Shown here piece after piece: positions 22,010-29,538 of a stretch of DNA of 64,000 nucleotides (its first letter is position 1; each line of letters starts with the position of its first letter). The notes under the pieces are model-generated. The model had not been told where the DNA came from. It ran no database searches and was given only the letters and a program-made list of their open reading frames with translations. The stretch is from Clavibacter sp. VKM Ac-2872 (GTDB lineage: Bacteria; Actinomycetota; Actinomycetes; Actinomycetales; Microbacteriaceae). The stretch spans positions 1-64,000 of the forward strand of contig NZ_JADKRR010000001.1 in the NCBI RefSeq assembly GCF_015351105.1, in the 5' to 3' direction. Both the position numbers and the translations under genes were made by a program.

Positions 22010-24166
22010 ATGACCGCTCCCGTCCGCACCGCGCCCCCGTCGGCCGACGCGCCTCCCGCGTCCGCCGCCGCGGCGTCGATCCCGGACCCCGCCCCGTCGC
22101 TCGCCGCGGTCGCGCGCGCCGACGGGGCCGGCCGGATCCCGGTGCGGGCGGTCGCGGTCGTCGCCCTCCTCGCGCTGGTCGTGGCGGTGCTCGCGGTGAT
22201 CGACGTCACCCAGGGCACCGCCGCGGTCGGCCCGCGCGAGGTGTGGCAGGCGCTCACCGGGCGCGCGACGCCGGGCGACGCATCCGTCGTGGTCGCGTCG
22301 CGGCTGCCGCGCATGGCGGCGGGGATCCTCGTGGGCCTCGCCCTCGGCGCGGCCGGCGCCGCCCTCCAGACCGTGAGCCGCAACGTGCTCGCCTCGCCCG
22401 ACACGCTCGCGGTGAACGCGGGCGCCTACGCGGCCCTCGCGGTCGCGGCGGTCACCGGGCTCACGCTGCCGGTGCTCGCGGGCGCGGGCGTCGCGTTCGT
22501 GGGCGGGCTCGTCGCGGCGGCGATCGTGCTCGCGGTCTCGGGCCTCGGATCCGGCACCGTGCGCCTCGTGCTCGCGGGCAGCGCGCTCGCGCTCGGCCTC
22601 GGATCCGTGACCAGCGCGCTCCTCCTCCTCTTCCCGCAGCAGACCTCCGGCCTCTACCGCTGGGGCCAGGGCGGCATCGGCCAGAACGGGTTCGACGCGG
22701 TCGCGCAGATGGCACCCGTCGTGGCGATCGCGCTCGGCATCCTGCTCCTCCTCACCCGACGGCTCGACGCGCTCGGGCTCGGCGACGACGCCGCCCGCAG
22801 CCTCGGCGTCGACGTGCGGGCGACCCGCGTGATCGCCGTGCTCGCCTCGGTGCTGCTCGCCGCCGCGGCCGTGACGGTCGCCGGCCCCATCGGCTTCGTG
22901 GGCCTGTACGCGCCCGCGTTCGTGCGGCCGCTGCGCCGGCTCGTGCCGGGCGTCCGGCGCTCGTGGGTCTTCGTCCCCGTCGCCGGCTTGATGGGCGCGG
23001 CCGTCGTGCTGCTCGCCGACGTGCTGCTGCGCGCGGTCGTCGGCGCCGAGGCGTCCGTCGCCGTGCCGACCGGGCTCGTCACCTCCCTCATCGGCGCGGT
23101 CGTGCTCGTGGTGCTGGCCGTGCGCACCCGCGACAGCGCGACGCCCGCGCCCACCGAGCGCCACGGCGTGATCACCCGCCGTCGCGCCGCGCTCGTGGTC
23201 GGCGCGCTGATCGCGGTGCTCGTCGGGCTGCTGATCGCCTCCGTGCTGCTCGGCGACGCGAAGCTGCTCCTCGGCGACCTCGTGAACGGGATCCGCGGCA
23301 CGGCCGGCCCCGTCGTCAGCTACGTGCTCGACACCCGCGTGCCGCGCGTGCTCGCGGCCGTGCTCGCCGGTGCGGCGCTCGCGCTGGCGGGCGTGCTCGT
23401 GCAGGCGGTGACCCGGAACCCTCTCGCGGATCCCGCGATCCTCGGCGTCTCCGGCGGCGCGGGCCTCGGCGCCGTGCTCTTCGTGACCACCGCGCCGCTC
23501 GCATCCGGCTGGGGCATCGCGGGCGCGGCCGGGCTCGGGGCGCTCGCCGCGGCGGCCGTCGTCTTCGGCCTCGCCGCGCGCGGCGGCTTCCCGCAGAACC
23601 GGCTCGTGCTCATCGGCGTCGGCGTCTCGGCGGGCACGGCCGCGGCCATCAGCATGATCATCGTGCTCACCGACCCGTTCAACGGCGCGAAGGCGCTCAC
23701 CTGGCTCTCCGGATCCACCTACGGCCGCGGGTTCGACGACGCCCTGCCGGTGCTGGTCGCCCTCGCGCTCACCGTGGCGGTCGCTGCTCCGCGGCACCGG
23801 ATGCTGGACCTCGTCGCCCTCGACGACGACACCCCGCGCCTCCTCGGCGTCTCGCTCGGCCGCTCGCGCCTGCTGGCCCTCTCGATCGCGGTGGTGCTCA
23901 CGGCGACGGCGGTCGCGGCGGTCGGCGTGATCGGCTTCGTCGGCCTGGTCGCGCCGCACGCCGCCCGCGCGCTCGTCGGATCCCGCCACGCGCGCGTCGT
24001 CCCCGTCGCGATCCTGCTGGGCGCCGCCCTCGTGACCCTCGCCGACCTGCTCGGCCGCACCGTGATCGCCCCGGGCCAGCTCGGCGCCGGCCTCGTGACC
24101 GCGCTCGTCGGCACGCCGTACTTCGTGTGGCTGCTGTGGCGCGGGCGGGCGGCGCGGGGGCGTTAG
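22010..24166 (+). CDS. Fused FecCD-type double permease
   Basis: 718 residues, ATG at 22010, 35 bp after the lipoprotein stop. Two complete FecCD permease halves are joined in one chain. Half 1 (about 45-370) has RLPRMAAGILVGLALGAAGA and GPIGFVGLYAPAFVRPLRRL. Half 2 (about 385-715) has TRVPRVLAAVLAGAALALAG and GVIGFVGLVAPHAARALVGS. Each half has about ten helices and its own coupling region. This is the FhuB arrangement, where one polypeptide makes the whole transmembrane pore instead of a dimer of two subunits. A ~25-residue charged linker joins the halves. Half 1 has YAPAFVRP where half 2 has the usual APHAARAL, so its ATPase contact is diverged. Confidence 0.94.
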   Translation: MTAPVRTAPPSADAPPASAAAASIPDPAPSLAAVARADGAGRIPVRAVAVVALLALVVAVLAVIDVTQGTAAVGPREVWQALTGRATPGDASVVVASRLPRMAAGILVGLALGAAGAALQTVSRNVLASPDTLAVNAGAYAALAVAAVTGLTLPVLAGAGVAFVGGLVAAAIVLAVSGLGSGTVRLVLAGSALALGLGSVTSALLLLFPQQTSGLYRWGQGGIGQNGFDAVAQMAPVVAIALGILLLLTRRLDALGLGDDAARSLGVDVRATRVIAVLASVLLAAAAVTVAGPIGFVGLYAPAFVRPLRRLVPGVRRSWVFVPVAGLMGAAVVLLADVLLRAVVGAEASVAVPTGLVTSLIGAVVLVVLAVRTRDSATPAPTERHGVITRRRAALVVGALIAVLVGLLIASVLLGDAKLLLGDLVNGIRGTAGPVVSYVLDTRVPRVLAAVLAGAALALAGVLVQAVTRNPLADPAILGVSGGAGLGAVLFVTTAPLASGWGIAGAAGLGALAAAAVVFGLAARGGFPQNRLVLIGVGVSAGTAAAISMIIVLTDPFNGAKALTWLSGSTYGRGFDDALPVLVALALTVAVAAPRHRMLDLVALDDDTPRLLGVSLGRSRLLALSIAVVLTATAVAAVGVIGFVGLVAPHAARALVGSRHARVVPVAILLGAALVTLADLLGRTVIAPGQLGAGLVTALVGTPYFVWLLWRGRAARGR

Positions 24167-24286
24167 GGGCGTCCGTGGTCCGGCCGACCGCGATGGTGTG
24201 CATGAAGACGTCACGGCGACGGGGGATCACCTAGCTTCTCGTGCGCGGGCCTCTTCGCCTACCACGCCCGTGTTGTGGGGACACTC

Positions 24287-24772
24287 ATGTTGGGGACGCT
24301 GCTGGTCATTGCCCGCATGTGCGCAGGTGGATTCTTCGTCTGGACGGGCAGCGCGAAACTGAGCCGGTCTCGACACTTCTGGTCCCAGATCATGGGTTAC
24401 AAGATCGTCGGACCCCGTCAAGCCAGATTGCTCGCTGCCGCGCTGCCTCCCGTCGAGTTCGTCGCCGGCTTGTTCTTCGCCGCTGGGCTATGGCCCGCCG
24501 TGACGGGGTGCGTCCTGCTTCTGCTGCTCGCCGCATTCACTGCCGCCATCGCATCCTCTCTGCTCCGCGGCCTCGAGAACGATTGCGGCTGCGCGGGGAG
24601 CGATCGCGTCTCACCGCTCCTCATCGTCCGCAACGTCATGCTCGCCTCGCTAGCGGTCGCCGGAATGTCATCCGCGGCGCCGGCTTATTCCGGCGAGATC
24701 ATCGTCGTGGCATGCGGGTGCCTCCTTGTCGTCGTAATCAGCTCCCATTCGTATCGTGCAATAGGAAGATGA
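24287..24772 (+). CDS. MauE/DoxX-like redox membrane protein
   Basis: 161 residues from the ATG at 24287 (GGGG about 6 nt upstream; an in-frame GTG at 24275 lacks a ribosome site). Four to five helices are visible, starting VIARMCAGGFFVWTGSAKLS and continuing with VEFVAGLFFAAGLWPAV and LLLLLAAFTAAIASSLLRG. After the third helix comes ENDCGCAGSD, the Cys-x-Cys-Ala/Phe-Gly motif of MauE-type proteins. MauE is needed for export or disulfide maturation of the Cys-rich methylamine dehydrogenase light chain. The next gene, 27 bp downstream, encodes a 12-cysteine protein, so this is its probable disulfide maturation factor. GC content is visibly lower than in the flanking genes, suggesting transfer. 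Confidence 0.8.
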   Translation: MLGTLLVIARMCAGGFFVWTGSAKLSRSRHFWSQIMGYKIVGPRQARLLAAALPPVEFVAGLFFAAGLWPAVTGCVLLLLLAAFTAAIASSLLRGLENDCGCAGSDRVSPLLIVRNVMLASLAVAGMSSAAPAYSGEIIVVACGCLLVVVISSHSYRAIGR

Positions 24773-24799
24773 TCACCATTCAAATCGAAAGGCATGCGC

Positions 24800-25486
24800 A
24801 TGTCGACTCGACGCAGCATCTTGAGGGGCCTCATCGGGGCCGCCGCGCTCACGGCAACCGGACAGGGCGGACCATTCACGGCGTTCGCCTCATCGGCTTC
24901 GGCGACGCCCATCCGTGAATCCGACCATCCGTGGTACCTGCAGCCGCTCGCGGCGACTGCCAGCGCGGGCGCCGATGATCTGGCGGTCCTCCATCGGGCA
25001 GCGGTGGCGGCGGCCGTCCAAGAGGGGTATGCGCCGGACGTCGTATCCTCGGCGGTCGCACAGGCCACCATGTCGGTCAACACCCGCGGCAACAGGGTCG
25101 GCAAGTGCTCCCTGATCTTGGATGCGCAGTCCGTATTCGTGCTGACGAAGGAGTTCGGAACGGGGCATCTGAATCGTCAGGCTGTGCAGACTCTCTGGGC
25201 GGGCGGTGACAGCCTCGTTCGAGATCTCGTGCCGGCTGCTCACGCCAAGATGATGGCTTCTGGCGAATCGGGCAGCATAGAGGCGGCGGATGCGGCTTCG
25301 AGCTGCTGTACCGTGCTCGGAAATGCGATCGGCACGTGTTGCCGATATGACTTCCAAGGGCTGTTCGAATGCTGCGGCCCCTGTGGTTTCACTTTTCCCG
25401 AGATCCCGGTCTTCATAGCCTGCGTTGCCATCTGGTGCAATTACTGCTCGGCGGCGCACTGTGAGGAGTGGTACTACGAATGTTGA
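24800..25486 (+). CDS. Secreted protein with 12-Cys C-terminal domain (bacteriocin-like)
   Basis: 228 residues from the ATG at 24800 (AAAGG 7 nt upstream; ATG at 24794 is too close to that site). It begins MSTRRSILRGLIGAAALTAT, a twin-Arg-bearing signal peptide ending near FASSASA. A central ~120 residues has one Cys and looks helical. The last ~62 residues hold 12 cysteines: SCC, TCC, ECC, GPC, IAC, IWC, NYC, AHC and the terminal YEC. This plan (signal, spacer or immunity-like part, Cys-rich C-terminus) is that of halocin C8 precursors; the 12-Cys count also recalls the methylamine dehydrogenase light chain, but no TTQ-type sequence is evident. Function is inferred only. Lower GC and codon use differ from neighbours. 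Confidence 0.72.
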   Translation: MSTRRSILRGLIGAAALTATGQGGPFTAFASSASATPIRESDHPWYLQPLAATASAGADDLAVLHRAAVAAAVQEGYAPDVVSSAVAQATMSVNTRGNRVGKCSLILDAQSVFVLTKEFGTGHLNRQAVQTLWAGGDSLVRDLVPAAHAKMMASGESGSIEAADAASSCCTVLGNAIGTCCRYDFQGLFECCGPCGFTFPEIPVFIACVAIWCNYCSAAHCEEWYYEC

Positions 25487-25748
25487 TGCGTCCGATGTGA
25501 GGTGCTCCCGGAGGTGGGTTGCGCCGATGCTGTCGAATGCGTGCCGAGCTCGATGGATGGGGAGCGCGTGCCCCGCACGCGAAACCGATGCCCTGTCCCT
25601 ACTCGGTCGCCGGGTCGGCTCGGCCGCACCGTGATCGGCTGAACTACTCGTCGCCCGCTCCGTCGCCGCCGGGGGTGGGGCTGACCCCACCTCGGATCCG
25701 GGAGCGGGCAGGATGGGAGCCGCACCGGCGCCTCGCGAGGCTGGGATC
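25487..25748. other. 262-bp intergenic region before kinase gene
   Basis: No coding sequence supported. The first half keeps the lower GC of the Cys-rich gene. The second half holds the nested hairpin at 25654-25708. The boundary between the low-GC islet and the high-GC backbone falls near 25620-25650. Confidence 0.45.
25654..25708. terminator. Nested hairpin upstream of histidine kinase
   Basis: Outer arms CCCGCTCC (25654-25661) and GGAGCGGG (25701-25708) enclose a perfect 7-bp hairpin, GGTGGGG-CTGA-CCCCACC (25674-25691). It could terminate the Cys-rich operon or be an operator of the two-component system whose start is 41 bp further on. Confidence 0.55.
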
Positions 25749-28294: not shown

Positions 28295-28654
28295 TCACCC
28301 GGCGGTGCCGGTCCACCTGTTCACGACCCACCCCACGGCCGAGGGCTCGTCGACGAGTCCGTCCGCCCAGTCGACGGCCAGCGAGACGGTCGGGCCGTCG
28401 GGGTCGCCGATCTCGTTGGCGAATACCGCAGATGCCAGGCTCTGCGCGTCGTTCGGCGAGAAGCACTTGGCGAGGTCCTCGAGCATCCAGCGTCGACCGA
28501 CGACCTGAGGGGAGTAGGACGCCCGGTACAGGATCACGGCGGAGCCGTCCGCGCGAGCCTGGCCGGCCACCCATGACTTCCGCGGGACCAGACCCGGGTT
28601 CGCCGAGAAGCGCGCGCGGATCGAGTCGACGAACACGTCTCCGTCGACCGTCAC
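28295..28654 (-). CDS. Hypothetical cytoplasmic protein, partner of secreted protein
   Basis: 119 residues, GTG start overlapping the upstream stop (GTGA), so its translation is coupled to the secreted protein. It contains many aromatic residues (YRASYSPQVVGRRWMLEDLA and VGWVVNRWTG), one Cys and no membrane segment or signal. No family recognised. Codon use is less GC-biased than in the neighbours. The order, secreted protein then coupled cytoplasmic protein, fits effector plus immunity or chaperone, but there is no direct support for that. Confidence 0.65.
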   Translation of the reverse strand: MTVDGDVFVDSIRARFSANPGLVPRKSWVAGQARADGSAVILYRASYSPQVVGRRWMLEDLAKCFSPNDAQSLASAVFANEIGDPDGPTVSLAVDWADGLVDEPSAVGWVVNRWTGTAG

Positions 28655-29277
28655 GGGACGTCCTGCCCGATGGACATCGGCTCATACGACCACGAGGTGG
28701 AGGTGGAAGTGGGCGATTCCTCGGAGAGGCGAGTCGCAGACGGCTTCTTCACTCCGATCGCGAGGTCGACCCAGGAGGGGCAGGCAAGCGCTCCGTCCGG
28801 GTTCAGGCAGTACGCCGTGATTATGCCGACCTCTTCACCGCCTAGAGCGACGCCATACCAATCGCTCTTTCCGACGGCTTTGTTGACCACTCTGACTTCT
28901 CGGGAATCCGTAACCGTGCAGCTCTCTTCGTCAGTGCACGTGATTTCGTTCGCGTACGCTGTGTAGCGCCTATCTTCGCCCTCGTCGACCCCGCCATCCG
29001 GATTCTTCAAGACAAAGCCGATGGAGTTCTTGCTGAAGATCGCGTGACGCTTTTGGATTTTGGTCCAACCGAAGCCGGCGACGCCGTCGTAAGTGCCTTG
29101 GCGGAGGATGATGGTCCGACCAGCGGCATCGGTCTCGGTTCCCACAATCGTCGCCCCATCCGCCGCAGAGGCTGATGTGGCGACCACGAGCCCGGATCCA
29201 CTCAACAGACCGATGAGGCCCGCCGTCATCGCTGCTGCTCGAACAGTTCGTGACATGCGATTCGTGTTATTCCCCAT
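28651..29277 (-). CDS. Secreted protein of unknown function
   Basis: 208 residues from the ATG at 29277 (GAGGGG 6 nt upstream). The signal peptide has RMSRTVRAAAM, a hydrophobic core and a likely cut at ASAADG. The mature protein is about 165 residues, acidic and Thr/Ser-rich, with four cysteines in two pairs (TCTDEESC and YCLNPDGALAC) suggesting two disulfides. A Ser/Thr-rich tail ends in SIGQDVP. No domain recognised. GC content is clearly lower than in the flanking genes, a sign of recent acquisition. It is coupled to the 119-residue gene downstream. Confidence 0.72.
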   Translation of the reverse strand: MGNNTNRMSRTVRAAAMTAGLIGLLSGSGLVVATSASAADGATIVGTETDAAGRTIILRQGTYDGVAGFGWTKIQKRHAIFSKNSIGFVLKNPDGGVDEGEDRRYTAYANEITCTDEESCTVTDSREVRVVNKAVGKSDWYGVALGGEEVGIITAYCLNPDGALACPSWVDLAIGVKKPSATRLSEESPTSTSTSWSYEPMSIGQDVP

Positions 29278-29538
29278 GATGCCCCTCATCCTTTGAGCTC
29301 ATTACTCTTCTGGCTGCGTCCCGGCCGCGCGACCATTTGCGCGGCAGGGGGCCCCTCGCCAGTTCCACGCCATCGTTCGACCGCAATCAGATATCGATCT
29401 ATAGATCACGCTAAGGGCGCCGATTGCCCGGGTCAACCGCGTACGGCGCATGTGGCAGATGTGGTATCGCGCGCCGTGCGGAGAGACGATCGAGGCCTGC
29501 ATCGTCGACGGCGCTGTGCCTTGGTAGCCCACCTGAAC
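29278..29538. other. 261-bp AT-richer intergenic region
   Basis: No gene supported. It contains the perfect 12-bp palindrome GATCTATAGATC at 29396-29407 inside an AT-rich patch, a likely promoter or operator zone for the secreted-protein gene to its left. Confidence 0.45.

What the first reader, a model, noticed from the sequence alone, without database searches (positions are those of the whole stretch)
24287..25486. MauE-like membrane protein plus secreted 12-cysteine protein: candidate disulfide-rich bacteriocin or cofactor system
Two adjacent lower-GC genes 27 bp apart. The first is a MauE-type membrane protein with the DCGCAG redox motif. The second is exported (twin-Arg signal) and packs 12 Cys into its last ~62 residues, including three CC pairs. 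MauE is known to be required for maturation of the disulfide-rich MADH light chain, and halocin C8 precursors have the same plan of Tat signal, spacer/immunity part and Cys-rich C-terminus. I see no mau genes, no protease and no transporter beside it, so this compact two-gene pairing may be an undescribed maturation-plus-peptide system.
Basis: partly seen in the sequence, partly recalled or inferred. Interest (0 to 1): 0.85.

Follow-up and report, generated by a model that had tools for sequence, protein, structure and literature searches.

The report
Two-gene disulfide-rich secreted peptide cassette
A small, mobile-looking pair of bacterial genes encodes a membrane redox protein and, right behind it, an exported protein whose tail is packed with twelve cysteines, so the first probably helps the second form its disulfide bonds; the likeliest use is a secreted peptide weapon, but nothing has been tested in the laboratory.

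Summary
A MauE-family membrane protein (24287-24772, Pfam E 7.7e-23) is followed after 27 bp by an exported-looking 228-residue protein (24800-25486) with an RR motif and 12 Cys in its last 60 residues, spaced CC-x9-CC-x9-CC. Both genes occur in the same 4 of 18 genomes of the genus; neither was found in the other 14. They form a lower-GC cassette of about 1.5 kb, missing with a clean junction in two relatives and bounded by a copied remnant of the upstream gene's end. All 13 Cys are invariant in the four. The second protein matched no Pfam or NCBIfam model, and no convincing relative outside the genus was found. No methylamine-dehydrogenase light chain passes cut-off in the genome. In a Streptomyces-like genus, 22 of 58 MauE genes lie near a Cys-rich ORF, against 5 of 100 control windows. 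So MauE beside a Cys-rich partner recurs, and a 2020 paper already proposed it as a candidate RiPP theme. The window is a lineage-restricted variant: the precursor carries its own Tat-like signal and long pro-region, with no MauD or exporter in the cassette. Best reading: MauE drives disulfide formation of a secreted, probably antagonistic, peptide. The antimicrobial role is inference only.

The parts
24172..25658 (.). the cassette as a unit: stretch missing, with 14 and 1 bases left between the matching flanks, in cassette-free relatives G643 and G109; GC 0.642
24049..24068 (+). stretch inside the upstream permease gene's end that recurs exactly at 25618-25637
25618..25637 (+). 20-base remnant of the permease end beyond the second gene; in G259 a 103-base copy, 97% identical, lies at the matching place
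24287..24772 (+). MauE/DoxX-type membrane protein, 161 aa (GTG 24275 also in frame); DCGCAG motif, a second CxC in the last hydrophobic stretch, five hydrophobic stretches
24800..25486 (+). exported-looking Cys-rich precursor, 228 aa, no model matched in Pfam or NCBIfam
24800..24901 (+). RR (Tat-like) signal region with an Ala/Ser-rich end, about 34 residues (boundary by eye)
   Evidence: motif seen by eye, no predictor run
24902..25303 (+). pro-region of about 134 residues with one Cys, ending in a Ser/Gly/Ala/Glu linker (boundary inferred)
25304..25483 (+). 60-residue core with 12 Cys, CC-x9-CC-x9-CC then six single Cys, pI about 4.1, 6.7 kDa
   Evidence: all Cys invariant

Best explanation
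The pair is a self-contained cassette for a secreted disulfide-rich peptide. The second gene makes a precursor that leaves the cell by its own RR (probably Tat) signal. Outside the membrane the 12 Cys of its last 60 residues pair up; the neighbouring MauE protein, through its CxC motifs, passes the electrons on to the membrane or recycles an unnamed oxidase, and so acts as the dedicated oxidant or isomerisation partner. A host protease then probably frees the tail at the Ser/Gly/Ala linker, leaving the pro-region as folding helper or self-protection, and the tail acts against competing bacteria. Shown: the genes, their linkage, joint presence and absence, Cys invariance, purifying selection. 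Inferred: export route, electron path, cleavage, and the antagonistic role (that last step about 0.35 alone).
For: MauE membership. The same four of 18 genomes hold both genes; neither was found in the other 14. Clean empty sites in two relatives, a copied remnant of the upstream gene's end beyond the cassette, and low GC. All 12 core Cys invariant. In three of four comparisons the core has the lowest dN/dS: 0.045, 0.096, 0.076, against 0.124, 0.15, 0.265 for residues 41-160 and 0.24 to 0.29 for MauE. No MADH light chain over cut-off for MauE to serve instead. In a Streptomyces-like genus 22 of 58 MauE loci have a Cys-rich ORF within 1.5 kb against 5 of 100 control windows, Fisher p 2.3e-7; the two main partner types fall on separate MauE branches, and partners are of unlike kinds. 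PMC7794033 proposed such a role for mauE in clusters. Sparse, cassette-like distribution fits a competition trait.
Against: No activity, expression or disulfide data. No protease, immunity gene, MauD or exporter in the cassette. The pro-region is conserved too, and in the fourth comparison (G000 against the nearly identical G644) it has no amino-acid change while the core has one, dN/dS 0.124; the protein may work uncleaved. One of the four genomes (G642) has an in-frame stop in the pro-region while core and MauE are intact. Sidedness of the DCGCAG loop was not determined. 36 of 58 MauE loci lacked such a neighbour at the threshold used. In the class-wide loci no convincing Cys-rich neighbour was seen. 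The tree does not place the window MauE with either partner branch.
Confidence: 0.45

Rival explanations
1. Same MauE-dependent disulfide formation, but the product is not a peptide weapon: it stays one secreted or surface protein (enzyme, inhibitor, adhesin or wall protein) stabilised by disulfides.
For: The pro-region is conserved along with the core; no dedicated protease or immunity gene in the cassette; elsewhere MauE lies near larger Cys-rich proteins, one resembling a double-psi barrel protein (L152, Pfam DPBB_1 just below its cut-off) and one with peptidoglycan-binding domains (L157).
Against: All but one Cys lie in the C-terminal 60 residues behind a linker; presence in 4 of 18 genus genomes and no convincing relative elsewhere fit a competition trait better than a housekeeping protein.
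Confidence: 0.3
2. A metal-binding (copper or zinc) Cys-rich protein, in the manner of captophorins/bufferins, whose operons also join a Cys-bearing precursor to a DoxX-like membrane protein.
For: DoxX co-occurs in MNIO clusters (PMC12668002 passages), and the hvf operon joins a signal-bearing Cys precursor with a DoxX-like protein (PMC13419390 passages). The window MauE matches DoxX weakly, E 0.0014, below its cut-off. A FecCD permease gene lies upstream, though its end is also found without the cassette.
Against: Neither cassette protein matched an MNIO or MNIO-precursor model; an MNIO elsewhere in the genome was not searched for. The precursor has a single Lys-Cys pair and no repeated one (sequence). 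MauE, not DoxX, is the better family match.
Confidence: 0.12
3. A maturation system for an unknown redox cofactor protein, as MauE serves the methylamine dehydrogenase light chain, with the second protein as electron carrier or enzyme subunit.
For: MauE homology; RR signal and 12 Cys recall the MADH light chain (recalled, no call).
Against: The second protein matched no Pfam model, so not PF02975, and none passes cut-off in the genome; the cassette has only these two genes.
Confidence: 0.06
4. The two genes are neighbours by chance or hitch-hiking, and MauE serves general thiol redox balance.
For: No co-expression data; no sigma-70-type promoter site found by a simple scan.
Against: 27 bp apart on one strand, jointly present or not found in 18 of 18 genomes, the only MauE match in those genomes, and the independent enrichment elsewhere.
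Confidence: 0.07

Closest known systems
decRiPPter mauE candidate RiPP families of Streptomyces (PMC7794033, section 7 read)
   Same: MauE homologue without other mau orthologues, in a cluster with a predicted precursor of at least 8 Cys; low frequency of occurrence
   Different: those passed a filter for transporter, peptidase and regulator; here the precursor has 228 aa with its own RR motif and the cassette holds only two genes
MauE clusters of a Streptomyces-like genus found here (type I: leader peptide with 6-10 Cys, MauE, redoxin-like protein, ABC transporter in at least one)
   Same: MauE near a Cys-rich gene product
   Different: short leader without signal motif (by eye) and an ABC transporter at hand; the window MauE is not placed with that branch, its position is unresolved
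Halocin C8 precursor (ProC8, haloarchaea)
   Same: layout of Tat export, N-terminal part and C-terminal peptide, 283 aa giving a 76 aa halocin (PMC11509114 passages); Cys content recalled
   Different: no family match found and no halocin sequence compared; no MauE partner known to me (recalled); immunity role of the N-terminal part untested here
MADH light chain MauA with MauE/MauD
   Same: MauE plus an exported Cys-rich partner (MauA features recalled)
   Different: no PF02975 match, no MADH light chain over cut-off, no MauD in the cassette
Captophorins/bufferins with a DoxX-like protein
   Same: Cys-bearing precursor in an operon with a DoxX-like membrane gene
   Different: no MNIO in the cassette; one Lys-Cys pair instead of repeats

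Membership tests
MauE (PF07291) | profile match over the curated cut-off | tested here: met
   81.6 bits against 27
MauE (PF07291) | CxC motif between the third and fourth hydrophobic stretches | tested here: met
   DCGCAG at residues 103-108 of the GTG-start frame
Methylamine dehydrogenase maturation system | MADH light chain (PF02975) in the genome | tested here: not met
   best E 0.5, none over cut-off
Halocin C8 family | sequence kinship of the C-terminal peptide | tested here: inconclusive
   no Pfam or NCBIfam match, but no halocin profile or sequence was compared directly
Halocin C8 family | Tat signal, N-terminal part, C-terminal Cys-rich peptide | tested here: inconclusive
   layout agrees by eye; only the RR motif was seen and no cleavage is shown
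Halocin C8 family | immunity conferred by the N-terminal part | not testable with these tools
   needs an assay
Fulvocin C-related (NF033852) | profile match | tested here: not met
   no NCBIfam family reported for the protein at E up to 10
decRiPPter mauE candidate RiPPs | mauE with a product of at least 8 Cys | tested here: met
   definition
decRiPPter mauE candidate RiPPs | transporter, peptidase and regulator in the cluster (their strict filter) | tested here: not met
   two-gene cassette; a permease and a histidine kinase flank it but match cassette-free relatives; filter
Captophorin/bufferin | MNIO enzyme gene in the cluster | tested here: not met
   neither cassette protein matches one; rest of the genome not tested
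Disulfide-rich bacteriocin in general | antibacterial activity of the mature peptide | not testable with these tools
   needs an assay

The most novel reading that the evidence does not exclude
A minimal class of secreted disulfide-rich antimicrobial: one Tat-exported precursor holding signal, pro-region (perhaps immunity) and a 12-Cys core of a new fold built on CC-x9-CC-x9-CC, matured by a single dedicated MauE, moving between strains as a 1.5 kb cassette that lands at the end of a permease gene, and one instance of a wider rule that each MauE clade is a private oxidase for its own Cys-rich exported partner.
Probability: 0.25. Interest if true: 0.8.

Novelty: new variant of a known kind. Interest (0 to 1): 0.55.

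Why it matters
What MauE-type proteins do outside methylamine metabolism is unsettled. A two-gene cassette in which MauE has one obvious candidate substrate makes the question testable with one deletion and one mass spectrum. If the tail is antimicrobial it would be a compact, disulfide-stabilised peptide with no matching model in the family libraries searched.

Tried and rejected
Known families were tried with Pfam, NCBIfam and PHROGs: for the first protein MauE, a DoxX match below cut-off and an NCBIfam match far below cut-off; for the second only a PHROGs match at E 0.014, taken as chance. PDB sequence searches gave only weak matches or none. AlphaFold2 gave mean pLDDT 33.9 from two sequences, so no fold search was made.

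Relatives of the second protein outside the genus: 6 of 398 family genomes matched at E 0.01 or better, being the window's own, G259 and four at E 0.002 to 0.01 over parts of the pro-region, judged chance. No relative in genome contigs with the second protein or with MauE as query, viral contigs, plasmids or phages. A profile search matched 53 of 286 class genomes at E up to 0.5; outside the window genome the best was E 0.0065, a TetR-like ORF by eye; the others were not looked at one by one. These scans use short exact seeds or limited draws, and near genomes may be left out of some, so distant relatives could be missed.

Fulvocin C-related proteins were considered because of their Cys content (recalled); the profile does not match the window protein and gave one weak match below cut-off in 246 phylum genomes. 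In the class-wide MauE loci a script flagged, apart from the second gene's own relatives, only ORFs that look like the wrong frame or strand by eye; three of these were looked at again and lie over other coding-like ORFs or read into another frame. That script's threshold would miss 6-Cys peptides. In the window's family 10 of the 11 other MauE matches have open frames of 343 aa or more, with a thioredoxin-like second half by eye in those shown.

One of the 22 positives (L159) may be a spurious ORF. Controls were 20 stretches of 20 kb placed by hand at round coordinates in 15 genomes, all of them MauE-bearing. The 6-Cys peptides have no control count.

A first look for repeats at the cassette ends compared only 24161-24260 with 25601-25700 and found none; the wider look found the permease remnant.

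Full report
What is there. At 24287-24772 lies a MauE-family membrane protein (PF07291, 81.6 bits, cut-off 27) and 27 bp later, at 24800-25486, an exported-looking protein of 228 residues. The second has an RR motif at its start (by eye), a pro-region of about 134 residues with one Cys, and a 60-residue tail with 12 Cys. The tail begins and ends with Cys and has three CC pairs exactly 11 residues apart, then six single Cys. It is acidic (pI 4.1) with positive mean hydropathy. The MauE has six Cys, including two CxC motifs, DCGCAG in a loop and CGC in the last hydrophobic stretch.

Is it more than chance? Twelve Cys in 60 residues is not expected at ordinary Cys content. The frames are kept in relatives: G644 nearly identical, G259 90% identical over the second protein, G642 intact in MauE and in the tail but with an in-frame stop in the pro-region. 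All 13 Cys are invariant in the four, G642 being represented by the part after its stop. dN/dS for the tail, residues 41-160 and MauE is 0.045, 0.124, 0.241 (G000-G259); 0.096, 0.15, 0.277 (G000-G642); 0.076, 0.265, 0.291 (G259-G642). For the nearly identical pair G000-G644 it is 0.124, 0 and 0.368, from very few changes, so there the tail is not the most constrained part. These are rough figures.

Distribution. The second protein is in 4 of 18 genomes of the genus and MauE in the same 4 of 18. Among 398 family genomes only the window's own and G259 matched strongly. No relative turned up in genome contigs, viral contigs, plasmids or phages, nor a convincing one by profile in 286 class genomes.

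The cassette. It lies between a FecCD permease gene and a histidine kinase gene. Of 12 genus genomes with the kinase gene, four have the cassette; of the other eight, four show the permease end within the 1.5 kb read upstream of the kinase. In two of these, G643 and G109, the matching flanks have 14 and 1 bases between them; in two, G329 and G356, about 900 bp of other DNA lies there. GC is 0.642 against 0.734. Beyond the second gene the window holds an exact 20-base copy (25618-25637) of a stretch inside the permease end (24049-24068). G644 has the same 20 bases and G642 has 22; in none of 1884 random window stretches of the same length was the longest match over 14, and the two clean empty sites lack it. 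In G259 the copy is much larger, 103 bases at 97% identity, running to the end of the permease gene, followed by about 6.4 kb of other genes before the kinase region. So the unit appears to have been inserted at the end of the permease gene together with a second copy of that end, since worn away in three of four genomes. How this happened is open; no recombinase gene is in the cassette.

What MauE lies near elsewhere. No MADH light chain passes cut-off in this genome, so MauE probably has another job. Within 1.5 kb, 22 of 58 had a coding-like ORF with at least 7 Cys in 65 residues, against 5 of 100 control windows of 3.4 kb from 15 genomes of that genus; for at least 8 Cys the figures are 21 of 58 and 2 of 100 (Fisher p 2.3e-7 and 6.4e-9). 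Related loci are counted as independent. By eye the 22 are 12 small peptides with a shared leader style (type I), 8 proteins alike to L152, which matches a double-psi barrel model just below its cut-off (type II), one protein with peptidoglycan-binding domains and an RR motif (type III, L157) and one doubtful ORF, L159. In the MauE tree the 12 type I rows lie in one branch of 27 rows (support 96/81) and the five type II rows that were kept form another (100/99). The window MauE stands on a long branch with no supported neighbours. Of 16 further loci on or beside the type I branch, 9 hold a 6-Cys peptide with the same leader style below the first threshold; 7 do not. Of three type I loci checked by Pfam for a redoxin-like gene, one is over cut-off (L139) and two below (L136, L106); an ABC transporter gene is over cut-off in L136 and below in L139, where it runs off the stretch. 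None of 4 type I peptides sent to Pfam or 6 sent to NCBIfam matched at E 0.1.

Mechanism. The pattern fits one reading: some MauE proteins serve Cys-rich exported partners, each branch its own. In type I the peptide shows no signal motif and an ABC transporter is at hand; in the window the precursor carries its own signal, so no exporter is needed. MauE would take electrons from the new disulfides, directly or through an oxidase. Which side of the membrane the CxC faces was not determined, and the lack of a MauD-like redoxin in the cassette leaves a gap. That the product is a weapon rests on sparse cassette-like distribution, precursor layout and analogy; it is inference.

Literature. PMC7794033 (section 7 read in full; other passages) named three Streptomyces candidate families with mauE, one also with mauD, each cluster with a predicted precursor of at least 8 Cys, and suggested a role in modifying RiPP precursors. 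So the pairing is in print as a candidate. I saw no experimental test of it in the listings of my library searches, which cover open-licence papers only. PMC11509114 (passages) gives the halocin C8 layout; PMC12893001 (passages) says HalC8 is freed by N-terminal cleavage by an unknown protease. PMC12668002 and PMC13419390 (passages) describe DoxX-like genes with Cys precursors in MNIO clusters.

Verdict.

Noticed in passing
L106 2002-2202, L110 1192-1371, L120 2062-2271, L136 2056-2355, L139 3956-4162 and others: MauE loci of a Streptomyces-like genus with short Cys-rich peptides that share a leader of the style RLLxxxxPxxxAxA; a redoxin-like gene follows in those checked (one over the Pfam cut-off, two below) and an ABC transporter in L136 (L139 below cut-off). 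Those peptides sent to Pfam and NCBIfam matched no model.
   Followed up: partly
L152 1373-1798 and L134, L135, L142, L143, L144, L147, L149: Cys-rich proteins (16 Cys in L152) near MauE; L152 matches DPBB_1 at 26.8 bits, below the cut-off of 28.8; the five of these MauE kept in the tree form their own branch.
   Followed up: partly
L157 702-4529: A MauE (Pfam over cut-off), an ORF with a CxxC by eye that matched no Pfam model, and a 307 aa protein with RR motif, 12 Cys and peptidoglycan-binding domains, downstream of an AIR-synthase-type gene that resembles selD by eye.
   Followed up: no
window 24166-25685 spot; L054 10421-17063, L198 505-1402, L203 499-1411: The permease-kinase gap is a variable spot: about 0.9 kb of other DNA in two genomes of the genus and, in G259, about 6.4 kb with acyltransferase-like and exporter-like ORFs by eye between the second permease-end copy and the kinase.
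   Followed up: partly
L055, second gene on the minus strand, just before 9985: In G642 the second gene has an in-frame stop in the pro-region while MauE and the Cys-rich tail are intact.
   Followed up: no
window 28651-29289 minus: A second lower-GC stretch with a 212 aa protein that looks exported by eye and has no Pfam match at E 0.1.
   Followed up: no
L009 774-1385, L017 2049-2627: In two family genomes MauE neighbours an RR-motif protein with only two Cys, the two alike by eye; L009's matched only a Pfam AIDA model below cut-off.
   Followed up: no
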